From Mayamaea pseudoterrestris (Eukaryota > Bacillariophyta > Bacillariophyceae > Sellaphorales > Sellaphoraceae): a stretch of 64,000 bases of DNA. Location: positions 1,984,001-2,048,000 of the forward strand of contig BROI01000002.1 of NCBI GenBank assembly GCA_027923505.1. Direction: 5' to 3'. Of the stretch, positions 2,493 through 64,000 are shown in pieces (the first letter of the stretch is position 1; each line of letters begins with the position of its first letter). The translations under genes were made by a program, and so were the position numbers. Under the pieces are notes generated by a model. The model had not been told where the DNA came from. It saw only the letters and a list, made by a program, of their open reading frames with translations, and did no database searches.

Positions 2493-5009
2493 TCAGACTT
2501 GATCATCTGCTGCCCCAATAGCGCGTATCCGTCTGCTAGCAAGGATGCGCCTCAAAGCTGTAGCAAGCTCTTTTGTTTCACACGGCAGCGGCTTCATCAT
2601 GAAGCAATCAGCGCCAGCATCCATGAATTGCGGAGCAATGTCATTTGCCGAAAGTCCGCAAATGACAGACTCGTTACCCTTGGCCCGCAATAAACGAGCA
2701 GTTTCAGTTCCGAGAAGTTGTTTTTGCGTACTCGCCATGTATTGGTCAAGGAAAATTAGATTAAATGGCTGATGTTTGTCAGTTTTGTCTTCAATCAATT
2801 GAATGGCCGCCTCTCCACTCGCTGCCTCGCAAACGATCCAGTCTGGTCGGCAGCGCCTGACAGAGCGCACAAAAAGTTTTCGCAAAATAAAATCGTCGTC
2901 AACAAACAGGACCGATACCACTGCTGGAAGTGAATCATCGGCTTCAGGCAGCGAGCAGGAATCAGAGGTATCCATGTCGTCAGTATCGGCTGTTATCTTG
3001 GTGTTTTTCACATCGACAAAATTTGTTTCCGTCATAGCACGGTGCAGCTCCCATGGTGTGTTGGAAGGGCCAGCTAAAGCAACGACAAAACGAGCTCCTG
3101 AAGAGTCAGCTATGCCACTATCATAAGTCTCGTCGAGATAGATTTCACCTTTCAGCAACTCGACTAAGTGCTTGCAGAGTGAAAGACCAATCCCTGTCCC
3201 TTGGCTTGAAGAATCCAGACTCGTCTGGAATTTGCTAAACAGATTCCCCCGTTTCTCGACTGGGATACCAGGACCAGAGTCTTCGACGCACAGATAAACT
3301 GCCTTATCATCCACATGAGCCTTTAATCGCACAAAACCCTTGACCACAAACTTGGTCGCATTCACGGCCAGGTTTAAAATGATTTGCTTTAGGCGCAACG
3401 GATCGGACATGATGACAAGATCGTCTGGACATTCAATAATGACATCAAAGACACAACCTCGATTGTAAAGCATCGAGGCAACTGGATTGAAAACGTCGTT
3501 GCGAATGTCAACATGCTTGGATTGTATCTTGATCTGATTACTCAGTGCACAATGAAAATCCAACATGGACCGTAATAAATCATTGATGTACTGTAGACTG
3601 TTGCCGATGACAATAACGTCTTCGCGAGTTGATTGTCGTGTTTCATCGCTCACTAACGGTTCTGCCTCATTAACAGCTATTGAAACGAACGAATTGGCCG
3701 AAATGGCGGCTGAAAGTGGGTTGCGGACTTCATGCGCAATGAAGTCATTAAGATCCCTTTCCGCCTGTGCTGCTCTCTTAGCGCTGTCAAGCAAAATTGC
3801 AGCTTTCTCTGCTCTTGCCTTTGACCTTGAAAATATCCACATGGCAGCACAAGTACTTGCCAGAATAATCATAAAGGCTCCAAAGATGGCGAGAAAATAA
3901 TCCGGCTTATATGTGCCAACGTATGCGACAGCAACAATTGTCCATTGCCGGGCCGCCAGGTCAAGAGCTTTATCTTTTCTTTGAATAATTGGCATGGCTG
4001 GCAGTGACGAATAGTTGACCTCTTTTGGGAATGTGAGCTGCTGTTGTATTCCCAACGTTGCCCCGCCCAGGAATGCCGGCTCGCCTTCAGCTTCAACAAC
4101 TGACTTGGTTGAATCGTAAACGTAAATGACTGTTTCATCATCCATCGCAAACTCCTGATAGGCTTTCTGTAGCAACGACATGAACCGAATCACAAGAACA
4201 GCAACATTCTTTTCGTAGCCCCCGACGCCGTCGTGCAAGCCGGGTTGAGCCATTGTGAGGCAGTACTCATACGGCTCATTGGGGTCCGTTGGTGGCGGAA
4301 GAAGCTTCAATCGTTCTGTAACTGCTAATGCCCCCGTCTCCAAGGATTCGTTGACACACTTGCTGTATTGCGATGTGTTCATGTCAAAATCTACAGCTTC
4401 CAAATTCCAAGGGTAGTTTTTATCCAACGGTTCCACAAAATGAGCGACAAAGTGAGATTCGTTTCGATTCGAATCGACCGGAATGACTCCAAGTTGAAGC
4501 TCTCCCGTCGAGTGATTGAGATTGTATCCAGTAAAGCCTTTATAGGGAAAATTTGGGTAATGCTTTGCCAAGTACGTCCGAGTTTGGTTCTCATACTTCG
4601 CTCGTTGGGCAGAGCCTACGACATGCACCGCGCAGGACACAGCTTCAAAGTCAAGCCCTGTCCAAGTAATGTACTCGTAAACTTCTCGAAACTCTTCAAA
4701 AGACATCCTATCAAGATGACAGGCTTGATGCAGCCAAAGGCCGCTTACTTTGTATTCTCCTAGAGCTGCATCAAACTTTAAAAAGGCCTCGTCGGCGATC
4801 TCGTTGAAACGCGTTGTCTGCTGAACCTTTTCGTCTGGAATACGGAGCGAAAGAATAATCGCTCCCACGCCCAAGCCAACCAAGACAATCAGCCAAGATA
4901 TGACGGCTGGAGCCTCCATGTCGCAAAAAAATCTCGAGGCGCAAAAGCTTCGACAAGCTTTTCTTCGTTGATTGCTGCCATTGCCTGTTGATGCGGGTTG
5001 CGTCGGCAT
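2493..5009 (-). CDS. CHASE-domain hybrid histidine kinase with receiver
   Basis: 838 aa, no intron needed. Order: TM1 at about residues 33-54; an extracytosolic CHASE-like sensor at about 60-360, with the diagnostic HFVEPLDKNYPWNLEAVDFD stretch followed by an ETGALAVTERLKL helix; TM2 at about 370-395; HisKA with H-box FIAHEVRNPLSAA (phospho-acceptor His426); HATPase with N-box ILNLAVNATKF, G1 DSGPGIP and G2 GTGIGLSLC; and a C-terminal receiver with acidic pair VDDD, phospho-acceptor Asp755 in IFLDQYM and the conserved Lys in MKPL. All catalytic motifs are intact. CHASE sensors bind small extracellular ligands, cytokinins in plants; the ligand here is unknown. A later Met at 4919 (MEAPAVISW) sits nearer TM1 and is an alternative start. 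A separate phosphotransfer partner would be expected elsewhere. Confidence 0.9.
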   Translation of the reverse strand: MPTQPASTGNGSNQRRKACRSFCASRFFCDMEAPAVISWLIVLVGLGVGAIILSLRIPDEKVQQTTRFNEIADEAFLKFDAALGEYKVSGLWLHQACHLDRMSFEEFREVYEYITWTGLDFEAVSCAVHVVGSAQRAKYENQTRTYLAKHYPNFPYKGFTGYNLNHSTGELQLGVIPVDSNRNESHFVAHFVEPLDKNYPWNLEAVDFDMNTSQYSKCVNESLETGALAVTERLKLLPPPTDPNEPYEYCLTMAQPGLHDGVGGYEKNVAVLVIRFMSLLQKAYQEFAMDDETVIYVYDSTKSVVEAEGEPAFLGGATLGIQQQLTFPKEVNYSSLPAMPIIQRKDKALDLAARQWTIVAVAYVGTYKPDYFLAIFGAFMIILASTCAAMWIFSRSKARAEKAAILLDSAKRAAQAERDLNDFIAHEVRNPLSAAISANSFVSIAVNEAEPLVSDETRQSTREDVIVIGNSLQYINDLLRSMLDFHCALSNQIKIQSKHVDIRNDVFNPVASMLYNRGCVFDVIIECPDDLVIMSDPLRLKQIILNLAVNATKFVVKGFVRLKAHVDDKAVYLCVEDSGPGIPVEKRGNLFSKFQTSLDSSSQGTGIGLSLCKHLVELLKGEIYLDETYDSGIADSSGARFVVALAGPSNTPWELHRAMTETNFVDVKNTKITADTDDMDTSDSCSLPEADDSLPAVVSVLFVDDDFILRKLFVRSVRRCRPDWIVCEAASGEAAIQLIEDKTDKHQPFNLIFLDQYMASTQKQLLGTETARLLRAKGNESVICGLSANDIAPQFMDAGADCFMMKPLPCETKELATALRRILASRRIRAIGAADDQV

Positions 5010-42536: not shown

Positions 42537-45500
42537 CTAACGCTGTTGAAGACGTTTCGCATTCTTAACACCTTTGTCCTTGCGAGTCACTAAACCCGCT
42601 GTCTTCGCCCCTCCAAAATTCCGCTTCTTTTCTGGCGCTTCCAATTCTTCAATATCTATAACTGGAGCAGCTTCGATACGGGTCGTTCCTTTCACATATC
42701 TCGACTCAATCTTCTCCTTCAGCTTGTTGCTGCGATCCATGTAGAATTTATAATCACCCTGGTATTTGACGAGATCTCTGTCCTCGATCGCAATAATTGT
42801 ATTCGCACACCTTGAAATGAAGTAACGATCGTGAGATACGATCATGACCGAGCCAGCAAAGTTCTGCAGCGCCTCTTCCAGCATTTGCTTGGCCGGAATC
42901 TAGAAAAAGAAAGCCAAATTTCACAGTGGGTGAGAACAAGCTTGAATGCCGAGATATACTCCACAGCTTAGGTTCACTATAAAAACACGTTTCTTCACAA
43001 ATTAAAGGCTCACATCTAAATGGTTCGTTGGCTGTAAAGTTCAACATGGGTAGTGTAAATTTTAGCACGGGTAAGACTGTGCTTCGCTAAACGTCAGACC
43101 ATATCGCTGCATATACATACCTCGTCCAATATTAAAAAGTTTGCTGGTCGAAGCATCATGCAGCAAAGCGACAAACGCGCCTTTTCTCCTCCGCTCAAGC
43201 TTCGGACCTTCTTTTCTGCAGCGTCACCTTTAAACAAAAATTGACCAAGCAATGCCCGCAGCTCGTTGTACGATTGTCCATTGCTGGCGCCCTGTATCGT
43301 TTCAAGCACGGTCTTGTCGAGATCAAGTGCATCCGCCTGATTCTGCTCAAAGTAGTTCATTACCACATTTTGGCCGACGATCTTTGCCATACCAGTGTCG
43401 GGTGACTCTGTCCCGACGAGCAATCGTAGAAGGGTACTTTTTCCGGAGCCTAATTGTTGCCAAATGTGCATGTTAGCTGACCGTCATTATATTCCAATCA
43501 GAGGCTGCAGCATAAACAAACTTACCGTTCGGCCCTACAACGGCAATACGATCGCCTTTTTCAATCAGAAGATCGACACTCTCGAACAGCCGATTCTGGG
43601 TTTGTTCGTTGCGGTACGCGTGCGACAAGCCAGCGATCTCAGCCACTTCCGGACTCAAGCGAGGAGCGTCTGGAAACCGAAATCGAAAAGGTTTGCCGGT
43701 GAAAGGTGGCTTTTGAACATATTCTTCACTAGCTTTGAACTTTTCCAGCTTGGCAATCCTTTGTTTAACGGCTTGTGGCTGCTTCACTTTGAAACGGCTT
43801 ATCCACTCTTTCTCTTCTTTGATCTTCTTCTCTTGTGCGGCGTACGCGGCGTTCCAAGCATCCATGCGAGCCTGCTTCAGCACGAGAAAGCGCGAATAAT
43901 TGCCATCGTACTCGGTGCAGATGCCGCCTTCAGCATCAACAATTTTAGTGCAAACCTGATCCAAAAACTCTCGATCGTGACTGACAATAACCATTGGTAT
44001 GTTCTGCTCTCTCAAAAACGCCTCGAGCCATTCGACAGAATTCAAATCCAAATGATTAGTTGGCTATAGATTATAGGAGGCGCGAGTCAGTAAACAGTTT
44101 TGGCATGCCAGTGATTTCCCCACCCTCCTATCGTACCTCGTCCAACAATAACACGTTTGGATCCTTCAGCAAGACTTTGCCCAGACCAATTCTCATCTTC
44201 CATCCACCCGAAAAGCTAGCAATCAAATCATCGCCCTCATCATCATTGAAACCCATGACATCCATTACTTTCTTTATGCGACTTTCGAGTGCGTAGACTT
44301 CCTTATTTTCGGCAAGATTCTGCAGCTCCTGCATGCGATCCAAAATCTGCTGCATGCGATCGACATCCTCGGGCGGCGAATTGCCTAATTCCGTCTCACA
44401 GTCTTTGAGCTCTTGCAAAATCTTATTCTCCTCCTCGAAAACTGACAAAAGCTCCTCGCGCAAGGTTCGCCCAGGCACTAGCTCGTCTACGAACTCCTGT
44501 CGAAGCATGGCGACACGCAAGTCACCACTGGACTTGACGACATCTCCCGTCGTCGGCTCCAACTCACCAGCGAGAATGCGAAGCTGTGTTGTCTTTCCAG
44601 CGCCTGTTAAGAAGATGTTTGTGAATACTCACTCGTCCTTGTGACTACCCCTTATAATATATATAACAACCTGTCTACACAAACTTACCATTTGCTCCCA
44701 CCAATCCAATGCGATCACCCGTCTGCACACCCCATGTGACATCCTTGAGCACCGCTTGGTTGCGAAACATGATACCCACATTTTCCAGTCGCAGCGACGT
44801 GTACCCGGGTTGCGAACTTTCCATGACGCGAATCCGCGGCGGCGGACGCTCCCGACGAATCTTGTCCTCCAGTGTCAATTGACCAGGTCTACTAACGGCG
44901 TACTCTCCCTCGCCGTCCATGTCGTCGTCGGAATACTCCAAATCGTCGAGTTGGTTGTCATTGTCGTCATCAGACTTGCCATTGACGCTCTCGGCAGATC
45001 CATTCAAATCAATCTGAGCATCACCGTCGCCATCATCACCATCACCATCTGCCACTTGCGGATTGTTGTTCTGCGCCTTTTTGGCCGCCTTGCGCTCCAT
45101 GCGCAGCGCCTCTTTTTCTTGCTTCTTTTTGAGCTCCTTGAGTTCCTTTTTCGATAGCACTGGCTCATCGGGATCAGTGTTGGAAGCAACATTGGCGTGG
45201 TATTCGTCGGCTTGCTGCTCCAGCAGTAGCATCTTTTCCATTTTGGAGAGCGGTCTGGGTGTCTCCGTTTCAGCATGAATGTTTATCTCTGCTTCTGCTA
45301 CTTCTGGCTTGCTCTTGACAACTGGTGCATCATCGACTGCATTTGCTTGTTGCTGCTGCTGTTGCTTGGCTTGTTGCTTCTTCTTCTTTTCAAGTTCCTT
45401 AAGCTCCTTCAACGACAATGGAGCATCCATCAAGGCTGTAGACTGTTCCAGCTTCTCCAAAGCATCAAGAGCGGCAGATGCTGCCTTGACTTTTTTCTTG

Positions 45501-45661
45501 GCGGCGTATAGTCTTGTTGTCGATGAAACGTGATGGGTCGTTGTCGAGTAAAATGTTGGTTTTACGATGGAGAAGGCTTTCGTCGATTCGGATAAAGCCA
45601 GCCAAAGTAGTGCGACTAGACAGGGTCGCTGTAATCTCCGTTTATTAATCAGCGTCCTCAT
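42537..45661 (-). CDS. Plastid-targeted ABC-F ATPase (ABCF5-like), six exons
   Basis: Minus-strand join: 45661-44689, 44603-44137, 44063-43526, 43449-43121, 43031-43014, 42899-42537 = 895 aa. Phases are consistent at all five introns (73-114 nt). Start chosen at ATG 45661 so that the signal peptide (RPCLVALLWLALSESTKA|FSIV) is N-terminal with Phe after cleavage; ATG 45778 would bury it. A charged, Lys/Gln-rich and acidic region follows. ABC1: GANG-AGKT, RQEFVDELVPGRT, FSGGWKMR, LLLDE-PTNHLD. ABC2: GPNG-SGKSTL, LSGGEKAR, LILDE-PTNHLD, SHDR. The C-terminal tail is basic. ABC-F proteins bind the ribosomal E site and relieve stalled or arrested translation; RQEFVDELVPGRT resembles plant plastid ABCF5. 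No transmembrane domains, as expected for ABC-F. Divergent from plastid EF-P. Confidence 0.93.
43014..43031 (-). other. 18-nt microexon encoding PTNHLD in the ABC-F gene
   Basis: Between the exon ending LILDE (43121) and the exon starting IPAKQ (42899), the invariant ABC-F motif would be missing unless an 18-nt exon is used. It lies at 43031-43014, reads exactly Pro-Thr-Asn-His-Leu-Asp, and is flanked by a TTACAG acceptor and a GTGAGC donor, phase 0 on both sides. Confidence 0.9.
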
Positions 45662-46039
45662 GCTTGCGCGGTCCAGTCGAGGTGATGGATTTAAATGCAA
45701 CGGCGCAAACTCGAACGGGTGAATGGTCATGGTGGACGAAAAAGCGAAAGAACTTGGCGCGCCGACGTGTTCCTTCACGACCCGGACGTAGATGAGTCAC
45801 TATGGGGTATAGTGTACTCATTTCACATCAATCAAGCGTTCGAAAACCTCTGATTACTATAGAACTTCAAGTAGTATGACGTCTTATCGAACGCCTTTGA
45901 GCACTGACGTCGGCTTGGAAATGGACTCGTGATTGCGCACCGTCCATCTCGTTTTCGACGGCCATGACGAAGAAAACGACGAGCCATCACTTCATACGAC
46001 AGATTCACAGTAGTTGCAGTCCATTTCACAATTGCCACC
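45662..46039. promoter_or_regulatory. Shared promoter region of plastid ABC-F and plastid EF-P genes
   Basis: 378 bp between two divergent starts (45661 minus, 46040 plus). EF-P starts in GCCACCATG context. The region has TGACGTC-like text near 45878 and 45905 (GTATGACGTC, CACTGACGTCGG), two copies of a bZIP/CRE-type core 27 bp apart. No ORF with recognisable content. Joint transcription of both plastid translation factors is inferred from layout only. Confidence 0.6.
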
Positions 46040-46821
46040 ATGTTTTGCAATCTGGCAATTCTCCTTCTAGCATTGACATGTAGCACCTCTAGTGCTTTTG
46101 TGCCTCGACCAGCACTCTCCTTTGCTCGATCAACTTCTTCATCACTGCAAGTCGCCATTGACACTAGCGACATTAAGAATGGCATGACGGTTCAAATTGA
46201 CGGTGAACCATACAAGGTCTTGTCGTTTAGCATTATGAAGCAAGCACGAGGGGCTGCCAAGACGACCATCAAGTTCAAGAATCTAATGAGAGGCAACACG
46301 ATCGAAAATACCTACCGAAGTGGAGAAAAGTTTGAAACGGCCATGATTGAAAAGAAGGATGTCATATTTTCGTATGAAGATGGAGTAAGTGTAATAATGA
46401 TTATGACTATGATTCTGAGAGAAGGGTTTTGCGTGATATAGTTAGGTTTCTCGCTTGCTAACATTATGCGTCATCATTTTCACTACAGCAAAACTTTTTC
46501 TTCATGGACTCGGCAAGCTTCGAGGAGGTCGCCGTCGATGTCAAGATTGTCGGCGACAAGGCCCAGTGGCTGACGGAAGGAGGTGCACTGACGCTGGTGG
46601 AGTTTAACGACAAGATTATTGAGGTGGTCACGCCGTCGCCATGTGTTTACACTATCACAGAGACGGAACCAAACGTCAAGGGTAACACGGCGCAGGGCTA
46701 CACCAAGCCGGCGACGCTGGACTGCGGTGCCACCATTAGCGTGCCGGGATATTTGGATGTTGGACAAAGGGTTCGCGTTGACACCGAAAAGGGTGTCTTT
46801 CAGGAGCGAGTGAATGAGTGA
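46040..46821 (+). CDS. efp: Plastid-targeted elongation factor P, two exons
   Basis: Join 46040-46384 and 46489-46821 = 225 aa; the 104-nt intron has a GTAAGT donor and CTACAG acceptor, phase 0 (SYEDG-QNFFFMDS). The leader MFCNLAILLLALTCSTSSA|FVPRP is a signal peptide ending in the plastid ASAFAP-type motif. Three EF-P domains follow: KOW-like N-terminal domain (IKNGMTVQIDGEPYKVL), the OB domain (FFFMDSASFEEVAVD) and the C-terminal OB domain with GNTAQGYTKPATLDCGA and SVPGYLDVGQRVRVDT. EF-P helps ribosomes past polyproline stalls by contacting the P-site tRNA. The loop that carries the modified Lys34 in E. coli reads MKQARGAAKTTIKFKNL here, so Arg occupies the tip. It is convergent with plastid enolase. 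Confidence 0.94.
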
Positions 46822-51634: not shown

Positions 51635-51789
51635 AGTGACGAGATAGAGTTGCGATTGTCGATGCAAACAAGACGAGGACTGCTTCGGTTCTTCGAAAAT
51701 GGTGCGGTCATTCATGGCGCGGGGAATTTCCGGTCACGAAGCAGAAAAAAAGAATTTGTTCTTTTCAATCATGTCTGCCCACCCATACG

Positions 51790-52850
51790 GTGAATGCTAG
51801 TACACGTGGGCTGGGAATGATTGTTATGCACCAATCTTACCGCATATGTGTCCCCAAGGATAGCCAGAGCAGAATTCATGGAACAAGAATATTGGGAGTA
51901 GTCGTTGAAGGCCTTACACTGTAGCACTGTGGAGCTAGTTACTGTGTGGACCTCTGCCCTCCTAAACAACTGATGTTACATGTGAGCCAGGAATGATTGT
52001 TATGCACCAATCTCACCGCATACAAGTTCCCAAGGAAGCCAGAACAGAATTCATGGAACAAGACTTTTGGGGGTAGTCCTTAAAGGCCACGCATGTTGCA
52101 CCATGGAGCTGGTTACTGTGTGGATCTTTGCCCTCCCAAACAACTGGTGCTACACGTGAGCTGGGAATGATTGTTATGCACCAATCTCACCCAATACGTG
52201 TCCCCAAAGATAGCCAGAACAAAATTCATGGAACAAGACTATTGGAGGTAGTCGTTGAAGGCCACACACTGTAGCACTATATAGCTGGTTACTGTGCGGA
52301 TTGTTGCCTCCCAAACAACTGATGCTACACGTGAGCTGGGAATGATTGTTATGCCCCAATCTCACCGCATATGGGTCCCCAAGGATAGCCAGAGCAGAAT
52401 TCATGGAACAAGACTATTGGGGGTAGTCCTTGAAGGCCACACACTGTAGCACCGTGTAGCTGGTTACTGTGCGGATCTTTGCCCTCCCAAACAACTGATG
52501 CTACACATGAGCTGGGAATGATTGTTATGCACCAATCTTACCGCATATGTGTCTCCAAGGATAGCAAGAGCAGAATTCATGGAACAAGAATATTGGGGGT
52601 AGTCGTTGAAGGCCTTACACTGTAGCACTGCAAAGCTAGTTACTGTGTGGACCTCTGCCCTCCTAAACAACTGATGTTACATGTGAGCCAGGAATGATTG
52701 TTATGCACCAATCTCACTGCATAGTTCCCAAGGAAGCCAGAACAGAATTCATGGAACAAGACTTTTGGGGGTAGTCCTTAAAGGCCATGCATGTTGCACC
52801 ATGGAGCTGGTTACTGTGTGGATCTTTGCCCTCCCAAACAACTGATGCTC
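51790..52850. repeat. About 175-bp tandem satellite, six copies
   Basis: The landmark CTGGGAATGATTGTTATG (or CCAGGAATGA) recurs at 51811, 51987, 52161, 52336, 52512 and 52688, spacing 174-176 bp. Copies 1 and 5 share private variants (GGCCTTACACTGTAGCACTG, CCTCTGCCCTCC), as do copies 2 and 6 (CATGTTGCACCATGGAGC), so the array has a four-copy higher-order unit of about 701 bp. Unrelated in sequence to the 169-bp family. Confidence 0.93.
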
Positions 52851-55025
52851 CAGCTTTCCCAATACTTGAGCTTGCCAGGATTGTTTGGTTTTCTAGGCCT
52901 CATTGATAGTTTGGCCCATGGTGGCTATGTTGGTAATTGATGGGGATGCCCAGCGGACCTGGTGGCGTGGTGTGGTGTGGCGACGTACGGGATACTTAGC
53001 TATGTGGAAGCTAGCATGTCTACTCCCAAAACTTGAAGGATTTGCATGTCCGCCAAGGTTGTAGAGGATGATTGACCTTACCAAAAGCTTTTTGAAAGGT
53101 GGGATAGCTTCACATGATGGGGATGGCCAAAGTTTTGCGGGTGCTGCCACTGCTGCTGTGTGACATACAGTCGCACAAAATACAGCGTATCTACTTCTGT
53201 TTTGCCATGAACACATGAGTTTCCCAGCACTGTATGAGTCATAGTAGCTCACGTATACCTTGTTGAAAGGTGGCATTGGCTAAAAGGACAATCAGAGCCA
53301 TAGTTTGATTGGTTAGCATTCATAGACTGCGCTGTTGGTCTATTTGGCCCATCACAGCTACTCCCACAGCTTTCCCAATACTTGAGCTTGCCATGTTTGT
53401 ATGGTTTTGTAGGCCTCATCGATAGTTTGGCCCATGGTGGCTATGTTGGTAAGTGGTGGGATGCCCGGCGGACCTGGTGGCGTGGTGTGGTGTGGCGACG
53501 TACGGGATACTTAGCTATGTGGAAGCTAGCATGTCTACTCCCAAAACTTGAAGGATTTGCATGTCCGCCAAGGTTGTAGAGGATGATTGGCCTTACCAAA
53601 AGCTTTTTGAAAGGTGGGAATGCTTCACATGATGGTGATGGCCAAAGTTCTGTGGATGCTGTCGCTGCTGCTGCGTGACATACAGTCACATGGAATACAG
53701 CGTATCTACTCCTGTTTTGCCAGGAACACATGAGTTGTCCAACATTGAATATGTCATAGTACCTCACGTTTATCTTGTCAAGAGGTGGAAATGGTTAAAA
53801 GGACAATCAGAGCCATAGTTTGATTGGTTTGGATTCATAGACTGCGCTGTTGTTCTCTTTGGCCCATCTACTCCCACAGCTTTCCCAAAACTTGAGCTTG
53901 CCAGGATTGTTTGGTTTTCTAGGCCTCATTGATGTTTTGGCCCATGGTGGCAATGTTTATTATTGATGGGATGCCCAGTGGTCCTGGTGGCGTGGTTTGG
54001 TGTGGCGACGTACGGGATACTTAGCTATGTGGAAGCTAGCATGTCTACTCCCAAAACTTGAAGGATTTGCATGACGGCCAAGGTTGTAGAGGATGATCGA
54101 CCATACAAAAAGCTTTTTGAAAGGTGGGAATGCTTCACATGATGGGGGTGGCCAAAGTTTTGCGGCTGCTCTTGCTGCTGCTGTGTGACATACAGTCGCA
54201 CAAAGTACAGCGTATCTACTCTTGTTTTGCCATGAACACATGAGTTGTCCAACATTGAATATGTCATAGTACCTCACGTTTATCTTGTCAAGAGGTGGAA
54301 ATGGTTAAAAGGACAATCAGAGCCATAGTTTGATTGGTTTGGATTCATAGACTGCGCTGTTGTTCTCTTTGGCCCATCTACTCCCACAGCTTTCCCAATA
54401 CTTGAGCTTGCCAGTTTTGTTTGGTTTTGTTGGCCTCATTGATAGTTTGGCCCATGGTGGCTATAATGATATTTGATGGGGATGCCCAGCTGACCTGGTG
54501 GCGTGGTGTGGTGTGGCGACGTACGGGATACTTAGCTATGTGGAAGCTTAGCATGTCTACTACCAAAACTTGAAGGATTTGCATGACCGCCAAGTTGTAG
54601 AGGATGATTGATCTTACCAAAAGCTTTTTGAAAGGTGGGAATGCTTCAAATGATGGAGATGGCCAAAGTTTTGCGGGTGCTGCCACTGCTGCTGTGACAT
54701 ACAATCACATGGAATGCAGCATATGTACTCCTGTTTTGCCAGGAACACATGAGTTGTCCAACATTGAATGTGTCATAGTAGCTCACGTTTACCTTGTCAA
54801 AAGGTGGAAATGGTTAAAAGGACAATCAGAGCCATAGTTTGATTGGTTTGGATTCATAGACTGCGCTCTTGTTCTCTTTGGCCCATCTACTCCCACAGCT
54901 TTCCCAATACTTGAGCTTGCCAGGTTTGTTTGGTTTTGTAGGCCTCATTAATAACATGGTCAATGGTAGCAATGATGGTAATTGATGGGGATGCCCAGCA
55001 CACCTGGTGGCATGGTGTGGTGTGG
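52851..55025. repeat. About 510-bp tandem satellite, 4.2 copies
   Basis: The landmark CAGCTTTCCCAATACTTGAG recurs at 52851, 53367, 53877 (one mismatch), 54387 and 54896, spacing 509-516 bp. Copies include GGCGACGTACGGGATACTTA and AAAAGGACAATCAGAGCCAT. The fifth copy breaks off at about 55025, where the 169-bp satellite begins. Short ORFs of 100-127 aa in each copy are repeated by-products with no recognised domain. Confidence 0.93.
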
Positions 55026-58000
55026 CTATAATATGGTAGGCATGGCGGGTGTCTCAGGGAATGGCAATGGTTTTGGTGACAACTTCTCACCAGTCTCATC
55101 CCGCAGATGCCATGACATTCAAACACCCCTACAGCAAGCCCTGTAGGTGCCCAAAGTACACCAGAATGGTGCCAACATCATTATTCAGTCTGCGCTACAA
55201 GATGGTAGGCTTGGCGGGTGTCTCAGGGGATGGCAATGTATTTGGTGACAACTTGTCACCAGTCTCAGCCCGCAGATGTAACGCCCCTACAGCAAAATCT
55301 GAAGGTGCCCAAAATACACCAGAATGGAGCCAACGTCATTATTCAGGCTGCACTACAAGATGGTAGGCTTGGCTGGTGTCTCAGGGGATGGCAATGTATT
55401 TGGTGACAACTTATCACCAGTCTCAGCCCGCAGATGCCGTGACATTCAAATGCCCCTACAGCAAGCCCTGTAGGTGCCCAAAATACACCAGAATGGTGCC
55501 AACATCATTATTCAGGCTGCGCTACAAGATGGTAGGCTTGGCTGGTGTCTCAGGGGATGGCAAGGTATTTGGTGACAACTTGTCACCAGTCTCAGCCTGC
55601 AGATGCCATGACATTCAAACGCCCCTACAGCAAGATCTGTAGGTGCCCAAAATACACCAGAATGGTGCCAACATCATTATTTAGGCTGCGCTACAAGATG
55701 ATAGGCTTGACTGGTGTCTCAGGGGATGGCAATGTATTTGGTGACAACTTGTCACCAGTCTCAGCCCGCAGATGCCGTGACATTCAAACGCCCCTACAGC
55801 AAGATCTGTAGGTGCCCAAAATACACCAGAATGGTGCCAACATCATTGTTCAGGATTCGCTACAAGATGGTAGGCTTGACTGGTGTCTCAGGGGATGGCA
55901 ATGTATTTGGTGACAACTTGTCACCAGTCTCAGCCCGCAGATGCCGTGACATTCAAACGCCCCTACAGCAAGCCCTGTAGGTGCCCAAAATACACCAGAA
56001 TGGTGCCAACATCATTATTCAGGCTGCGCTACAAGATGGTAGGCTTGGCTGGTGTCTCAGGGGATGGCAATGTATTTGGTGACAACTTGTCACCAGTCTC
56101 AGCCTGCAGATGCCGTGACATTCAAACGCCCCTACAGCAAGATCTGTAGGTGCCCAAAATACACCAGAATGGTGCCAACATCATTGTTCAGGATTCGCTA
56201 CAAGATGGTAGGCTTGGCTGGTGTCTCAGGGGATGGCAATGTATTTGGTGACAACTTGTCACCAGTCATTATTCAGGCTGCGCTACAAGATGGTAGGCTT
56301 GGCTGGTGTCTCAGGGGATGGCAATGTATTTCGTGACAACTTGTCACCAGTCTCAGCCCGCAGATGTTGTGACATTCAAACGCACCTACAGCAAAATCTG
56401 AAGGTGCCCAAAATACACCAGAATGGAGCCAACATCATTATTCAGTCTGCGCTACAAGATGGTAGGCTTGGCTGGTGTCTCAGGGGATGGCAATGTATTT
56501 GGTGACAACTTATCACCAGTCTCAGCCCGCAGATGCCGTGACATTCAAACGCCCCTACAGCAAGCCCTGTAGGTGCCCAAAATACACCAGAATGGTGCCA
56601 ACATCATTATTCAGGCTGCGCTACAAGATGGTAGGCTTGGCTGGTGTCTCAGGGGATGGCAATGTATTTCGTGACAACTTGTCACCAGTCTCAGCCCGCA
56701 GATGTTGTGACATTCAAACGCCCCTACAGCAAAATCTGAAGGTGCTCAAAATACACCAGAATGGAGCCAACATCATTATTCAGTCTGCGCTATAAGATGG
56801 TAGGCTTGGCTGGTGTCTCAGGGGATGGCAATGTATTTGGTGACAACTTATCACCAGTCTCAGCCCGCAGATGCCGTGACATTCAAACGCCCCTAAAGCA
56901 AGCCCTGTAGGTGCCCACAATAAACCAGAATGGGGCCAACATCATTGTTCAGGCTGCGCTACAAGATGGTAGGCTTGGCTGGTGTCTCAGGGGATGGCAA
57001 TGTATTTGGTGACAACTTGTCACCAGTCTCAGCCCGCAGATGCCGTGACATTCAAACGCCCCTACAGCAAGCCCTGTAGGTGCCCAAAATACACCTGAAT
57101 GCTGATAAAATCATTATTCAGGCTGCGCTACAAGATGGTAGGCTTGGCTGGTGTCTCAGGGGATGGCAATGTATTTGGTGACAACTTGTCACCAGTCTCA
57201 GCCCGCAGATGCCGTGACATTCAAACGCCCCTACAGCAAGCCCTGTAGGTGCCCAAAATACACCTGAATGCTGACAACGTCATTATTCTGTCTGCGCTAC
57301 AAGATGGTAGGCTTGGCTGGTGTCTCAGGGGATGGCAATGTATTTGGTGACAACTTGTCACCAGTCTCAGCCCGCAGATGCCATGACATTCAAACGCCCC
57401 TACAGCAAGCCCTGTAGGTGCCCAAAATACACGAGAATGGTGCCAACATCATTATTCAGGCTGCACTACAAGATGGTGGGCTTGGCTGGTGTCTCAGGGG
57501 ATGGCAATGTATTTGGTGACAACTTGTCACCAGTCTCAGCCCGCAGATGCCGTGACATTCAAACGCCCCTGCAGCAAGCCCTGTAGGTGCCCAAAATACA
57601 CCAGAATGGTACCAACATCATTGTTCAGGCTGCGCTACAAGATGGTAGGCTTGGCTGGTGTCTCAGGGGATGGCAATGTATTTGGTGACAACTTGTCACC
57701 AGTCTCAGCCCGCAGATGCCGTGACATTCAAACACACCTACAGCAAGCCCTGTAGGTGCCCAAAATACACCAGAATGGTGCCAACATCATTATTCAGGCT
57801 GCGCTACAAGATGGTAGGCTTGGCTGGTGTCTCAGGGGATGGCAAGGTATTTGGTGACAACTTGTCACCAGTCTCAGCCTGCAGATGTTGTGACATTCAA
57901 ACGCCCCTACAGCAAAATCTGAAGGTGCCCAAAATACACCAGAAATGGAGCCAACATCATTATTCAGGCTGCGCTACAAGATGGTAGGCTTGGCTGGTGT

Positions 58001-61000
58001 CTCAGGGGATGGCAATGTATTTGGTGACAACTTGTCACCAGTCTCAGCCCGCGGATGCCATGACATTCAAACGCCCCTACAGCAAGATCTGTAGGTGCCC
58101 AAAATACACCAGAATGGTGCCAACATCATTATGCAGACTGCGCTACAAGATGGTAGGCTTGGCTGGTGTCTCAGGGGATGGCAATGTATTTGATGACAAC
58201 TTGTCACCAGTCTCAGCCCGCAGATGCCGTGACATTCAAACGCCCCTACAGCAAGATCTGTAGGTGCCCAAAATACACCAGAATGGTGCCAACATCATTA
58301 TTCAGGCTGCGCTACAAGATGGTAGGCTTGGCGGGTGTCTCAGGGGATGGCAATGTATTTGGTGACAACTTGTCACCAGTCTCAGCCCGCAGATGCCATG
58401 ACATTCAAACACCCCTGCAGCAAGCCCTGTACATGCCCAAAATACACCAGAATGGTGCCAACATCATTGTTTAGGCTGCGCTACAAGATGGTAGGCTTGA
58501 CTGGTGTCTCAGGGGATGGCAATGTATTTGGTGACAACTTGTCACCAGTCTCAGCTTGCAGATGCCGTGACATTCAAACGCCCCTACAGCAAGCCCAGTA
58601 GGTGCCCAAAATACACATGAATCCTAACAACACCATTATTCAGGCTGCGCTACAAGATGGTAGGCTTGGCTGGTGTCTCAGGGGATGGGAATGTATTTGG
58701 TGACAACTTGTCACCAGTCTCAGCCTGCAGATGCCGTGACATTCAAATGCCCCTACAGCAAGCCCTGTAGGTGCCCAAAATACACCAGAATGGTGCCAAC
58801 ATATTACACAGGCTGCGCTACAAGATGGTAGGCTTGACTGTTGTCTCAGGGGATGGCAATGTATTTGGTGACAGCATGTCACCAGTCTCAGCCCGCAGAT
58901 GCCATGACATTCAAACGCCCCTACAGCAAGCCCTGTAGGTGCCCAAAATATACCAGAATGGTGCCTACATCATTATTCAGGCTGCGCTACAAGATAGTTG
59001 GCTTGGCTGGTGTCTCAAAGGATGGCAATGTATTTGGTGACAACTTGTCACCAGTCTCAGCCCGCAGATGCTGTGACATTCAAATGCCCCCTACAGCAAG
59101 CCCTGTAGGTGCCCAAAATACACCAGAATGGTGCCAACATCATTATTCAGGCTGCGCTACAAGATGGTAGGCTTGGCTGGTGTCTCAGGGGATGGCAATG
59201 TATTTGGTGACAACTTGTCACCAGTCTCAGCCCGCAGATGCCGTGACATTCAAATGCCCCTGCAGCAAGCCCTGTAGGTGCCCAAAATACTCCAGAATGG
59301 TACCAACATCATTATTCAGGCTGCGCTACAAGATGGTAGGCTTGGCTGGTGTCTCAGGGGATGGCAATGTATTTGGTGACAACTTGTCACCAGTCTCAGC
59401 CCGCAGATGCCGTGACATTCAAACGCCCCTACAGCAAGCCCTGTAGGTGCCCAAAATACACCAGAATGGTGCCAACATAAATATTCAGGCTGCGCTACAA
59501 GATGGTATGCTTGACTGGTGTCTCAGGGGATGGCAATGTATTTGGTGACAACTTGTCACCAGTCTCAGCCCGCAGATGCCGTGACATTCAAACGCCCCTA
59601 CAGCAAGCCCTGTAGGTGCCCAAAATATACCAGAATGGTGCCAACATCATTATTCAGGCTGCGCTGCAAGATGGTAGGCTTGGCTGGTGTCTCAGGGGAT
59701 GGCAATGTATTTGGTGACAACTTGTCACCAGTCTCAGCCCGCAGATGCCGTGACATTCAAACGCCCCTACAGCAAGCCCTGTAGGTGCCCAAAATATACC
59801 AGAATGGTGCCAACATCATTATTCAGGCTGAGCTACAAGATGGTAGGCTTGGCTGGTGTCTCGGGGGATGGCAATGTATTTGGTGACAACTTGTCACCAG
59901 TCTCAGCCCGCAGATGCCATGACATTCAAACGCCCCTACAGCAAGCCCTGTAGGTGCCCAAAATACACCAGAATGGTACCAACATCATTATTCAGGCTGC
60001 GCTACAAGATGGTAGGCTTGGCTGGTGTCTCAGGGGATGGCAATGTATTTGGTGACAACTTGTCACCAGTCTCAGCCCGCAGATGCCGTGACATTCAAAC
60101 GCCCCTACAGCAAGATCTGTAGGTGCCCAAAATACAACAGAATGGTGCCAACATCATTTTTTAGACTGCGCTACAAGATGGTAGGCTTGGCTGGTGTCTC
60201 AGGGGATGGCAATGTATTTGGTGACAACTTGTCACCAGTCTCAGCCCGCAGATGCCGTGACATTCAAACGCCCCTACAGCAAGCCCTGTAGGTGCCCAAA
60301 ATACACCAGAATGGTGCCAACATCATTATTCAGGCTGCGCTACAAGATGGTAGGCTTGGCTGGTGTCTCAGTGGATGGCAATGTATTTGGTGACAACTTG
60401 TCACCAGTCTCAGCCCACAGATGCCGTGACATTTAAACGCCCCTACAGCAAGATCTGTAGGTGCCCAAAATACACCAGAATATTGCCAACATCATTATTC
60501 AGGCTGCGCTACAAGATGGTAGTCTTGGCTGGTGTCTCAGGGGATGGCAATGTATTTGGTGACAACTTGTCACCAGACTCAGCCCGCAGATGCCGTGACA
60601 TTCAAACGCCCCTACAGCAAGCCCTGTAGGTGCCCAAAATACACCTGAATGCTGACAACGTCATTATTCTGTCTGCGCTACAAGATGGTAGGCTTGGCTG
60701 GTGTCTCAGGGGATGGCAATGTATTTGGTGACAACTTGTCACCAGTCTCAGCCCGCAGATGCCGTGACATTCAAACGCCCCTACAGCAAGATCTGTAGGT
60801 GCCCAAAATACAACAGAATGGTGCCAACATCATTTTTTAGACTGCGCTACAAGATGGTAGGCTTGGCTGGTGTCTCAGGGGATGGCAATGTATTTGGTGA
60901 CAACTTGTCACCAGTCTCAGCCCGCAGATGCCGTGACATTCAAACGCCCCTACAGCAAGCCCTGTAGGTGCCCAAAATACACCAGAATGGTGCCAACATC

Positions 61001-64000
61001 ATTATTCAGGCTGCGCTACAAGATGGTAGGCTTGGCTGGTGTCTCAGGGGATGGCAATGTATTTGGTGACAACTTGTCACCAGTCTCAGCCCACAGATGC
61101 CGTGACATTTAAACGCCCCTACAGCAAGATCTGTAGGTGCCCAAAATACACCAGAATGGTGCCAACATCATTATTCAGGCTGCGCTACAAGATGGTAGTC
61201 TTGGCTGGTGTCTCAGGGGATGGCAATGTATTTGGTGACAACTTGTCACCAGTCTCAGCCCGCAGATGCCGTGACATTCAAACGCCCCTACAGCAAGCCC
61301 TGTAGGTGCCCAAAATACACCAGAATGGTGCCAACATCATTATTCAGGCTGCGCTACAAGATGGTAGGCTTGGCTGGTGTCTCAGTGGATGGCAATGTAT
61401 TTGGTGACAACTTGTCACCAGTCTCAGCCCACAGATGCCGTGACATTTAAACGCCCCTACAGCAAGATCTGTAGGTGCCCAAAATACACCAGAATGGTGC
61501 CAACATCATTATTCAGGCTGCGATACAAGATGGTAGTCTTGGCTGGTGTCTCAGGGGATGGCAATGTATTTGGTGACAACTTGTCACCAGACTCAGCCCG
61601 CAGATGCCGTGACATTCAAACGCCCCTACAGCAAGCCCTGTAGGTGCCCAAAATACACCTGAATGCTGACAACGTCATTATTCTGTCTGCGCTACAAGAT
61701 GGTAGGCTTGGCTGGTGTCTCAGGGGATGGCAATGTATTTGGTGACAACTTGTCACCAGTCTCAGCCCGCAGATGCCGTGACATTCAAACGCCCCTACAG
61801 CAAGATCTGTAGGTGCCCAAAATACAACAGAATGGTGCCAACATCATTTTTTAGACTGCGCTACAAGATGGTAGGCTTGGCTGGTGTCTCAGGGGATGGC
61901 AATGTATTTGGTGACAACTTGTCACCAGTCTCAGCCCGCAGATGCCGTGACATTCAAATGCCCCTACAGCAAGCCCTGTAGGTGCCCAAAATACACCAGA
62001 ATGGTGCCAACATCATTATTCAGGCTGCGCTACAAGATGGTAGGCTTGGCTGGTGTCTCAGTGGATGGCAATGTATTTGGTGACAACTTGTCACCAGTCT
62101 CAGCCCACAGATGCCGTGACATTTAAACGCCCCTACAGCAAGATCTGTAGGTGCCCAAAATACACCAGAATGGTGCCAACATCATTATTCAGGCTGCGCT
62201 ACAAGATGGTAGTCTTGGCTGGTGTCTCAGGGGATGGCAATGTATTTGGTGACAACTTGTCACCAGACTCAGCCCGCAGATGCCGTGACATTCAAACGCC
62301 CCTACAGCAAGCCCTGTAGGTGCCCAAAATACACCTGAATGCTGACAACGTCATTATTCTGTCTGCGCTACAAGATGGTAGGCTTGGCTGGTGTCTCAGG
62401 GGATGGCAATGTATTTGGTGACATCTTGTCACCAGTCTCAGCCCGCAGATGCCATGACATTCAAATGCCCCTACAGCAAGCCCTGTAGGTGCCCAAAATA
62501 CACCAGAATGGTGCCAACATCATTATTCTGGCTGCGCTACAAGATGGTAGGCTTGGCTGGTGTCTCAGGGGATGGCAATGTATTTGGTGACAACTTGTCA
62601 CCAGTCTCAGCCCGCAGATGCCGTGACATTCAAATGCCCCTACAGCAAGATCTGTAGGTGCCCAAAATACACCAGAATGGTGCCAACATCATTATTCTGG
62701 CTGCGCTACAAGATGGTAGGCTTGGCTGGTGTCTCAGGGGATGGCAATGTATTTGGTGACAACTTGTCACCAGTCTCAGCCCGCAGATGCCGTGACATTC
62801 AAACGCCCCTACAGCAAAATCTGTAGGTGCCCAAAATACTCCAGAATGGTGCCAACATCATTATTCAGGCTGCGCTACAAGATGGTAGGCTTGGCTGGTG
62901 TCTCAGGGGATGGCAATGTATTTGGTGACAACTTGTCACCAGTCTCAGCCCGCAGATGCCATGACATTCAAACGCCCCTACAGCAAGCCCTGTAGGTGCC
63001 CAAAATACACCAGAATGGTACCAACATCATTATTCAAACTGCGCTACAAGATGGTAGGCTTGGCTGGTGTCTCAGGGGATGGCAATGTATTTGGTGACAA
63101 CTTGTCACCAGTCTCAGCCCGCAGATGCCGTGACATTCAAACGCCCCTACAGCAAGCCCTGTAAGTGCCCAAAATACACCAGAATGGTGCCAACATCATT
63201 ATTCAAGCTGCGCTACAAGATGGTAGGCTTGGCTGGTGTCTCAGGGGATGGCAATGTATTTGGTGACAACTTGTCACCAGTCTCAGCCCGCAGATGCCGC
63301 GACATTCAAACGCCCCTACAGCAAGCCCTGTAAGTGCCCAAAATACACCAGAATGGTGCCAACATCATTATTCAGGCTGCGCTACAAGATGGTAGTCTTG
63401 ACTGGTGTTTCAGGGGATTGCAATGTATTTGGTGACAACTTGTCACCAGGCTCAGCCCGCTGATGCTGTGACATTCAAACGCCCCTACAGCAAGCCCTGT
63501 AGGTGCCCTAAATACACCAGAATGGTGCCAACATCATTGTTCAGTTTACGCTACAAGTTGGTAGGCTTGGCTGGTGTCTCAGGGGATGGCAATGTATTTG
63601 GTGACAACTTGTCACCAGTCTCAGCCTGCAGATGCCGTGACATTCAAACGCCCCTACAGCAAGCCCTGTAGGTGCCCAAAATACACCAGAATGGTGCCAA
63701 CAACATTATTCAGGCTGCGCTACAAGATGGTAGGCTTGGCTGGTGTCTCAGGGGATGGCAATGTATTTGGTGACAACTTGTCACCAGTCTCAGCCCGCAG
63801 ATGCCATGACATTCAAATGCCCCTACAGCAAGCCCTGTAGGTGCCCAAAATACACCAGAATGGAGCCAACGTCATTATTCAGTCTGCGCTACAAGATGGT
63901 AGGCTTGGCTGGTGTCTCAGGGGATGGCAATGTATTTGGTGACAACTTGTCACCAGTCTCAGCCCGCAGATGCCGTGACATTCAAACGCCCCTACAGCAA
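55026..64000 (+). repeat. 169-bp tandem satellite array, right block (about 53 monomers, runs off window)
   Basis: Same family as 19505-23580 but in the opposite orientation. GGTGTCTCAGGGGATGGCAA recurs every 169 bp to the window end. Length variants include an 11-bp deletion near 55278, an 84-bp deletion near 56267 and a 1-bp insertion near 57943. Each monomer holds two dyads: GGTGACA-ACT-TGTCACC and CCTACAG-CAAGCC-CTGTAGG. The left edge monomers are more diverged than the interior. No gene, promoter or mobile-element ORF is embedded. ORFs of 80-109 aa inside are frame read-throughs of 1.6 monomers. Confidence 0.98.
60025..62390 (+). repeat. Higher-order repeat block (four-monomer, 676-bp unit) in the right array
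   Basis: Variant markers recur together: the CATCATTTTTTAGACTGCGC type, the CAGTGGATGG plus CATTTAAACG type, the GGTAGTCTTGG type and the GCTGACAACGTCATTATTCTG type. The last lies at 60651, 61665 and 62341: spacings 1,014 (6 x 169) and 676 (4 x 169). The block therefore reads as three copies of a four-monomer unit with one extra dimer in the middle copy, a sign of recent unequal exchange. Confidence 0.88.

What the first reader, a model, noticed from the sequence alone, without database searches (positions are those of the whole stretch)
42537..45661. Introns at exactly homologous positions in both ABC halves of one gene
In ABC1 an intron splits the last Gly codon of GANG after its first base; in ABC2 an intron splits the same Gly codon of GPNG in the same phase. 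A second pair sits, phase 0, directly between DE of Walker B and PTNHLD in both halves. The ABC-F tandem duplication predates eukaryotes, so inherited introns from a spliced single-domain ancestor are not expected. Either introns were gained in parallel at identical proto-splice sites (G|G and GAG|C), or intron-bearing segments were copied between the halves. The two Walker A introns also share their first ten bases (GTAAGTTTGT), but so short a match at a donor may be chance.
Basis: partly seen in the sequence, partly recalled or inferred. Interest (0 to 1): 0.82.

Follow-up and report, generated by a model that had tools for sequence, protein, structure and literature searches.

The report
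Introns crowd ATP-binding motifs of ABC-F genes
In this genome the introns of an ABC-F gene sit at matching places in its two ATPase halves because introns have repeatedly and independently ended up inside the same few conserved ATP-binding codons, here and in sister genes, which makes it an unusual natural experiment on where introns go.

Summary
In detail: introns 1 and 3 split the same Walker A glycine codon (phase 1); introns 2 and 4 lie between DE and PTNHLD (phase 0). The gene is a nuclear, cyanobacterial-type ABC-F. Each half groups with the same half of intron-free cyanobacterial orthologs, so the introns postdate the tandem duplication. Paired introns are no more alike than shuffled ones, so copying is not supported.

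The pairing belongs to a larger pattern. In 12 ABC-F genes here, 28 of 37 introns fall in Walker A or DEPTNHLD (7.2% of codons; 20.5 against 0.51 introns per kb). Exon-flank preference predicts 2-3. Three exact sites are each used in 4 of 24 halves, each needing four changes on the tree. Planted-intron controls show no bias towards motifs. Kinases and ABC transporters show a similar tendency; DEAD-box and EF-Tu-type samples show it weakly; AAA and Cpn60 do not.

Best reading: repeated independent gain at favoured motif sites, probably with reduced loss there; the balance between the two is open. No RNA evidence, no eukaryotic orthologs, species not identified.

The parts
42537..45661 (-). six-exon ABC-F gene, 895 aa, two ABC domains joined by the ABC_tran_Xtn linker
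   Evidence: Pfam PF00005 in two exons and PF12848 in one; cyanobacterial orthologs at 46-48% identity
44604..44688 (-). intron 1, Walker A of half 1, GAN|G phase 1
44064..44136 (-). intron 2, DE|PTNHLD of half 1, phase 0
43450..43525 (-). intron 3, Walker A of half 2, GPN|G phase 1
43032..43120 (-). intron 4, DE|PTNHLD of half 2, phase 0
43014..43031 (-). 18-nt microexon coding PTNHLD
   Evidence: the pattern search finds two such microexons in the genome
42900..43013 (-). intron 5, PTNHLD|IPAKQ phase 0, not in the finding

Best explanation
The paired introns are independent, parallel gains. A tandem ABC-F gene of cyanobacterial type entered the nucleus without introns. Introns were then inserted separately into each half, at a few favoured nucleotide positions inside the two conserved ATP-binding motifs (Walker A GxN|G phase 1, DE|PTNHLD phase 0, PTNHLD|x phase 0). 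The same happened in other halves of other ABC-F genes of this genome. Shown: positions, intron-free tandem bacterial orthologs, separate ancestry of the halves, unlike intron sequences, concentration in motifs, repeated origin of the same sites on the tree. Inferred: that such sites are preferred at insertion and also lost less often, because an imprecise deletion inside an invariant motif would destroy the ATPase. The balance between insertion preference and retention is not resolved.
For: 28 of 37 ABC-F introns in 455 of 6281 codons; flank-weighted expectation 2.87 (maximum 14 in 200,000 simulations) or 2.38 (maximum 11). Sites GxN|G.1, G|GK.1 and DE|P.0 each in four halves with four changes on the half tree, LD|x.0 in three with three. 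Halves of this gene belong with the matching cyanobacterial halves. Introns at identical sites are not more alike than others. Planted introns: 36 of 36 motif and 415 of 504 other positions recovered exactly, no false call inside motifs. Motif introns also in ABC transporters and kinases. Precedent for parallel gain after endosymbiotic transfer: PMC2834692 (passages).
Against: No RNA evidence and no eukaryotic ortholog. Flank preference inside the motifs does not fully explain the recurrence either (identical-site pairs 14 against 6.6 in Walker A, 168 of 5000 simulations as high; 10 against 4.1 in the D motif, 120 of 5000), so something beyond it may act. By bacterial-only conservation the two Walker A introns of this gene lie at percentiles 0.71 and 0.77 only.
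Confidence: 0.7

Rival explanations
1. Pure survivorship: introns were once spread evenly and were lost by imprecise genomic deletion everywhere except inside invariant motifs, where only an exact deletion is tolerated. The matching sites are chance survivors at proto-splice sites.
For: Introns sit in conserved stretches in several families; 11 full-length or nearly full-length Cpn60 hits are unbroken, so the genome has few introns in that family.
Against: Motif density of 20.5 per kb is about three times the 6-7 per kb of the most intron-rich lineages (PMC3174169, passages), so retention without preferential or sustained gain does not reach it. Identical sites recur more than flank weights predict.
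Confidence: 0.13
2. Copying: intron-bearing segments, or introns alone, were copied between halves or between paralogs, by gene conversion or by reverse splicing into a homologous exon junction, and have since diverged.
For: Exact recurrence at the same sites in several halves; the same PTNHLD microexon in two halves of different clades; a run of identical codons TTG GAC GAG CCA around introns 2 and 4.
Against: No similarity between introns of a pair or between introns at identical sites generally (4709 of 5000 label permutations as high or higher); halves are not each other's nearest relatives; different phases and sites elsewhere in the same motifs.
Confidence: 0.09
3. Selection for introns in catalytic motifs as a fail-safe or switch: an unspliced transcript then gives no active ATPase.
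For: Each of the five introns has an in-frame stop; introns lie in catalytic motifs of kinases and ABC proteins.
Against: No expression or retention data; a stop-bearing intron upstream of the motif would work as well.
Confidence: 0.06
4. Inheritance of both introns from a spliced single-domain ancestor that was later duplicated in tandem.
For: Only the positional identity.
Against: Bacterial orthologs are already tandem and read through without introns; the halves were separate before the eukaryotic gene.
Confidence: 0.02

Closest known systems
[quoted passage not shown] passages)
   Same: Intron-free organelle-derived genes gained introns at the identical site, at a proto-splice sequence.
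   Different: One site in two separate genes; here two pairs inside one gene, and many motif sites across a family.
Introns shared by separately acquired homologs (PMC9120149; passages)
   Same: Gives a baseline for parallel gain: 5.0% and 5.4% of LECA introns.
   Different: Here 4 of the 5 introns of one gene are paired between its halves.
Parallel intron gains in Daphnia populations (PMC4202315; passages)
   Same: Many independent gains at nearly the same place (43 of 90 newly gained introns).
   Different: Young introns in alleles of single loci; the passages seen name no protein-motif preference.
Introns gained in fused peridinin-chlorophyll protein genes of Symbiodinium (PMC4201569; passages)
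   Same: Phase-1 introns in glycine codons of an internally duplicated gene.
   Different: The passages seen report no matched pair in both repeats.
Endo et al. 2002, do introns favour or avoid conserved regions (recalled; seen only in the reference list of PMC1800838)
   Same: As I recall it, phase-1 introns prefer conserved regions, mainly through glycine codons.
   Different: Here phase-0 and phase-2 introns are in the motifs too, and flank weights do not account for the excess.

Membership tests
ABC-F ATPases | two ABC domains in tandem | tested here: met
   PF00005 in exon 2 and exon 4 pieces; both Walker A, signature and Walker B motifs in the spliced product
ABC-F ATPases | ABC_tran_Xtn linker between the domains | tested here: met
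   PF12848, 67.1 bits against a cut-off of 25.9
ABC-F ATPases | no transmembrane domain, action on the ribosome | not tested
   no predictor or assay run; sequence relatives in the PDB are EttA, YbiT, ABCF1, ARB1 and others
Spliceosomal introns | GT-AG borders and an intact frame after removal | tested here: met
   all five introns
Spliceosomal introns | removal from the transcript | not testable with these tools
   no RNA data held
Parallel intron gain | identical position and phase in homologous sequences whose common ancestor lacked the intron | tested here: met
   for positions; for intron-free tandem ancestors and separate halves
Parallel intron gain | unlike intron sequences | tested here: met
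Parallel intron gain | patchy presence in eukaryotic orthologs | not testable with these tools
   no eukaryotic relatives held; viral contigs gave none
Intron copying between halves | similar introns or a tract of identical synonymous codons | tested here: not met
   (15 of 32 identical codons against 11.0 expected; introns like shuffles)

The most novel reading that the evidence does not exclude
Spliceosomal introns in this lineage spread by targeting: they insert preferentially into conserved coding motifs shared among domains and paralogs (Walker A, LSGG, DEPTNHLD, perhaps HRDLKPEN), for example by reverse splicing into transcripts whose sequence matches the intron's original exon junction, a retrohoming-like process within gene families.
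Probability: 0.15. Interest if true: 0.88.

Novelty: new variant of a known kind. Interest (0 to 1): 0.62.

Why it matters
How introns choose their sites is an old open question. Here one genome offers 24 homologous domain halves in which introns repeatedly occupy the same invariant codons, about 40-fold denser than elsewhere in the same genes. Because the bacterial orthologs are already tandem and intron-free, inheritance is excluded for the pairing in this gene, so insertion targeting and protected retention can be tested against each other in sister species. The ten paper searches of the held library listed no title or abstract start that reports such motif concentration; I saw passages of eight of the papers, and most subscription journals are absent from that library.

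Tried and rejected
Copying between halves: not supported. Origin by tandem duplication of exon sequence, prompted by a GC-AG intron in L070 whose start repeats the exon GGCAAGT: no excess over all introns (intron start against downstream exon 1.86 against 2.13 shuffled; exon end against intron end 2.65 against 2.68). Proto-splice content as the full cause: rejected. Aligner bias: rejected (introns outside motifs are recovered less well, 443 of 504 nearly in place, which cannot make the excess). Relatives in viral contigs: 10 stretches matched a pattern, none confirmed. Structure prediction was not run.

Rows dropped or changed before counting. ABC-F: five aligner calls were set aside as artefacts or ambiguous (L070 at 1665, L077 at 2370, L079 at 1986, L082 at 1905, L072 at 3171) and one GC-AG intron in L070 was added by hand. 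With the five kept, 29 of 42 would be in motifs; without the added one, 27 of 36. L075, a partial copy of L074, was left out. One search uses a slightly wider D motif (29 motif introns). Kinases: 150 listed rows were parsed; 119 of 229 candidates had been scored and further matches were not listed. 30 junction loci were fetched; 23 of 36 introns called passed the splice-site filter, the near-copies L120 and L121 both among them. EF-Tu-type: L095 left out as a near-copy of L094. DEAD (35 of 95 candidates scored) and AAA (19 of 106) favour unbroken domains.

Against the wider claim: the one AAA intron has percentile 0.58; two Cpn60 genes look interrupted and, read by eye, neither break was placed in a motif; seven of the reliable introns outside ABC-F have percentiles of 0.04-0.39 (L122, L125, L129, L140, L150, L094, L099).

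Full report
The finding concerns a minus-strand gene at 45661-42537. Its spliced product is an 895-aa ABC-F protein: PF00005 in two exons, the ABC_tran_Xtn linker in the exon between, and 46-48% identity over query residues 1-536 to cyanobacterial orthologs. Fifteen bacterial stretches that I translated (14 cyanobacterial, one Lachnospiraceae) read through without a stop. The N-terminus (a signal-like stretch, then TKAF) looks like a complex-plastid presequence, but that is recalled knowledge and no predictor was run. On the other strand upstream lies an EF-P gene.

The four introns are as described, and a fifth follows PTNHLD in half 2. An alignment with a cyanobacterial protein alone and one with a leave-one-out family profile give the same five introns. 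Introns 4 and 5 leave an 18-nt exon coding exactly PTNHLD. A pattern search of the genome finds two such microexons: this one, and one in half 1 of a sister gene on contig C19.

Origin of the pairing. In a tree of 30 domain halves, half 1 of this gene joins half 1 of the cyanobacterial proteins (100/97) and half 2 joins their half 2 (96/94). The h1/h2 split is not perfect in that tree: half 1 of L079, a long branch, falls with the h2 rows, and the second halves of L072 and L076 fall beside the h1 rows. The cores of introns 1 and 3, and of 2 and 4, are no more alike than shuffled sequences (266 and 178 of 300 shuffles as good or better). Codons of residues shared by the halves near the motifs are identical in 15 of 32 cases against 11.0 expected; a short run TTG GAC GAG CCA is identical at the Walker B site. 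Copying is not supported, though old copying of a very short tract cannot be excluded.

The family. I mapped introns in 12 ABC-F loci of the genome, the window gene and 11 others. Of 37 accepted introns, 28 lie in Walker A or DEPTNHLD columns, which are 455 of 6281 codons. Placement weighted by the exon-flank preference of these introns expects 2.87 and reaches at most 14 in 200,000 simulations; trained on the nine introns outside motifs it expects 2.38 and reaches 11. Density is 20.5 per kb in motifs and 0.51 outside. Walker A carries 14 introns in 14 of 24 halves; the D motif carries 15 in 12 of 24. GxN|G phase 1, G|GK phase 1 and DE|P phase 0 are each used in four halves and LD|x phase 0 in three; the half tree needs four, four, four and three changes. 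GK|T phase 0 in two sister genes needs one change, so inheritance explains that one. Two of the 12 genes (L079, L082) have no accepted intron in the region.

Controls. Introns planted at random in nine of these coding sequences were recovered exactly in 36 of 36 motif and 415 of 504 other positions, with 43 false calls, none of them inside motifs. Introns at identical sites are not more alike than other introns.

The anomaly is the motif concentration, not the pairing. Identical-site pairs also exceed flank weights inside the motifs (14 against 6.6, 168 of 5000 simulations; 10 against 4.1, 120 of 5000).

Beyond ABC-F. In five ABC transporter loci chosen because their hits were split, nine of ten called introns fall in Walker A, the signature or Walker B to D-loop: LSGG first glycine (phase 1 in L154, L155, L156; phase 2 in L153), Walker A in L152 (border uncertain), LLLDE in L152, ATS in L154, and two around a 12-nt exon LDSE in L153; the tenth, in L154, is doubtful. 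In protein kinases, 14 of 27 contiguous exon breaks fall at profile positions 116-131 (HRDLKPEN and neighbours) and 8 at 148-168. Exact junctions include LK|PEN phase 0 and KP-E phase 1. Mean local-conservation percentile of introns: ABC-F 0.83 (n=37, P<1e-5), kinases 0.74 (n=23, P 2e-5), EF-Tu-type 0.735 (n=5, P 0.034), DEAD-box 0.71 (n=6, P 0.037), AAA 0.58 (n=1). For the window gene with bacterial conservation alone it is 0.84 (n=5, P 0.0027), the Walker A introns at 0.71 and 0.77. The tendency outside ABC proteins is moderate, the samples are small and partly selected by what the searches scored, and some kinase sites may be inherited among paralogs.

Interpretation. Parallel gain is established in print (PMC2834692, PMC9120149, PMC4202315; passages). 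[quoted passage not shown] its identity was not established here. Insertion preference and reduced loss can both contribute. The motif density is about three times that of intron-rich lineages (6-7 per kb, PMC3174169), which argues that retention alone is not enough, although sustained gain with almost no loss in motifs could reach it.

Limits: one genome, no RNA, no eukaryotic orthologs, gene models from homology only.

Noticed in passing
L153 (G000:C23:323900-324560): P-glycoprotein-like gene with a 12-nt exon LDSE at the D-loop, the same place as the PTNHLD microexons.
   Followed up: partly
L080 (G000:C16:73500-77000), offsets 2336-2356: A third ABC-F gene with a 20-nt exon around NHLD in half 2, with introns before and after it.
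   Followed up: partly
L070 (G000:C6:244000-248500, minus strand), offsets 1383-1455: A 72-nt GC-AG intron in Walker A with no stop in frame, so that unspliced RNA stays open; its start repeats the downstream exon GGCAAGT.
   Followed up: partly
L072 (G000:C22:540000-544800), offsets 3064-3260: Two donor-acceptor pairs separated by a single G (..CACAG|G|GTACGT..): either one intron with another donor or a nested two-step intron.
   Followed up: no
L133 (G000:C35:28310-28750): A kinase with an apparent 6-nt exon inside KPENL between two introns; the second donor is weak.
   Followed up: no
window 45968-46821: EF-P gene in divergent orientation beside the ABC-F gene; its intron, starting about 46385, splits YEDG|QNFFFMD. 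Both products are translation-related.
   Followed up: partly
L075 (G000:C15:259000-263000): Partial, apparently broken copy of the ABC-F gene in L074.
   Followed up: no
L094/L095 (C2, C12) and L120/L121 (C6): Near-identical gene copies; exon matches 189/203 and 323/331 (LepA-like), 109/113 and 114/122 (kinase), introns 87/96 and 66/81 with length differences.
   Followed up: partly
window 51734-64000: No stop-to-stop frame of 130 aa or more in about 12 kb; no run of N and ordinary GC.
   Followed up: no
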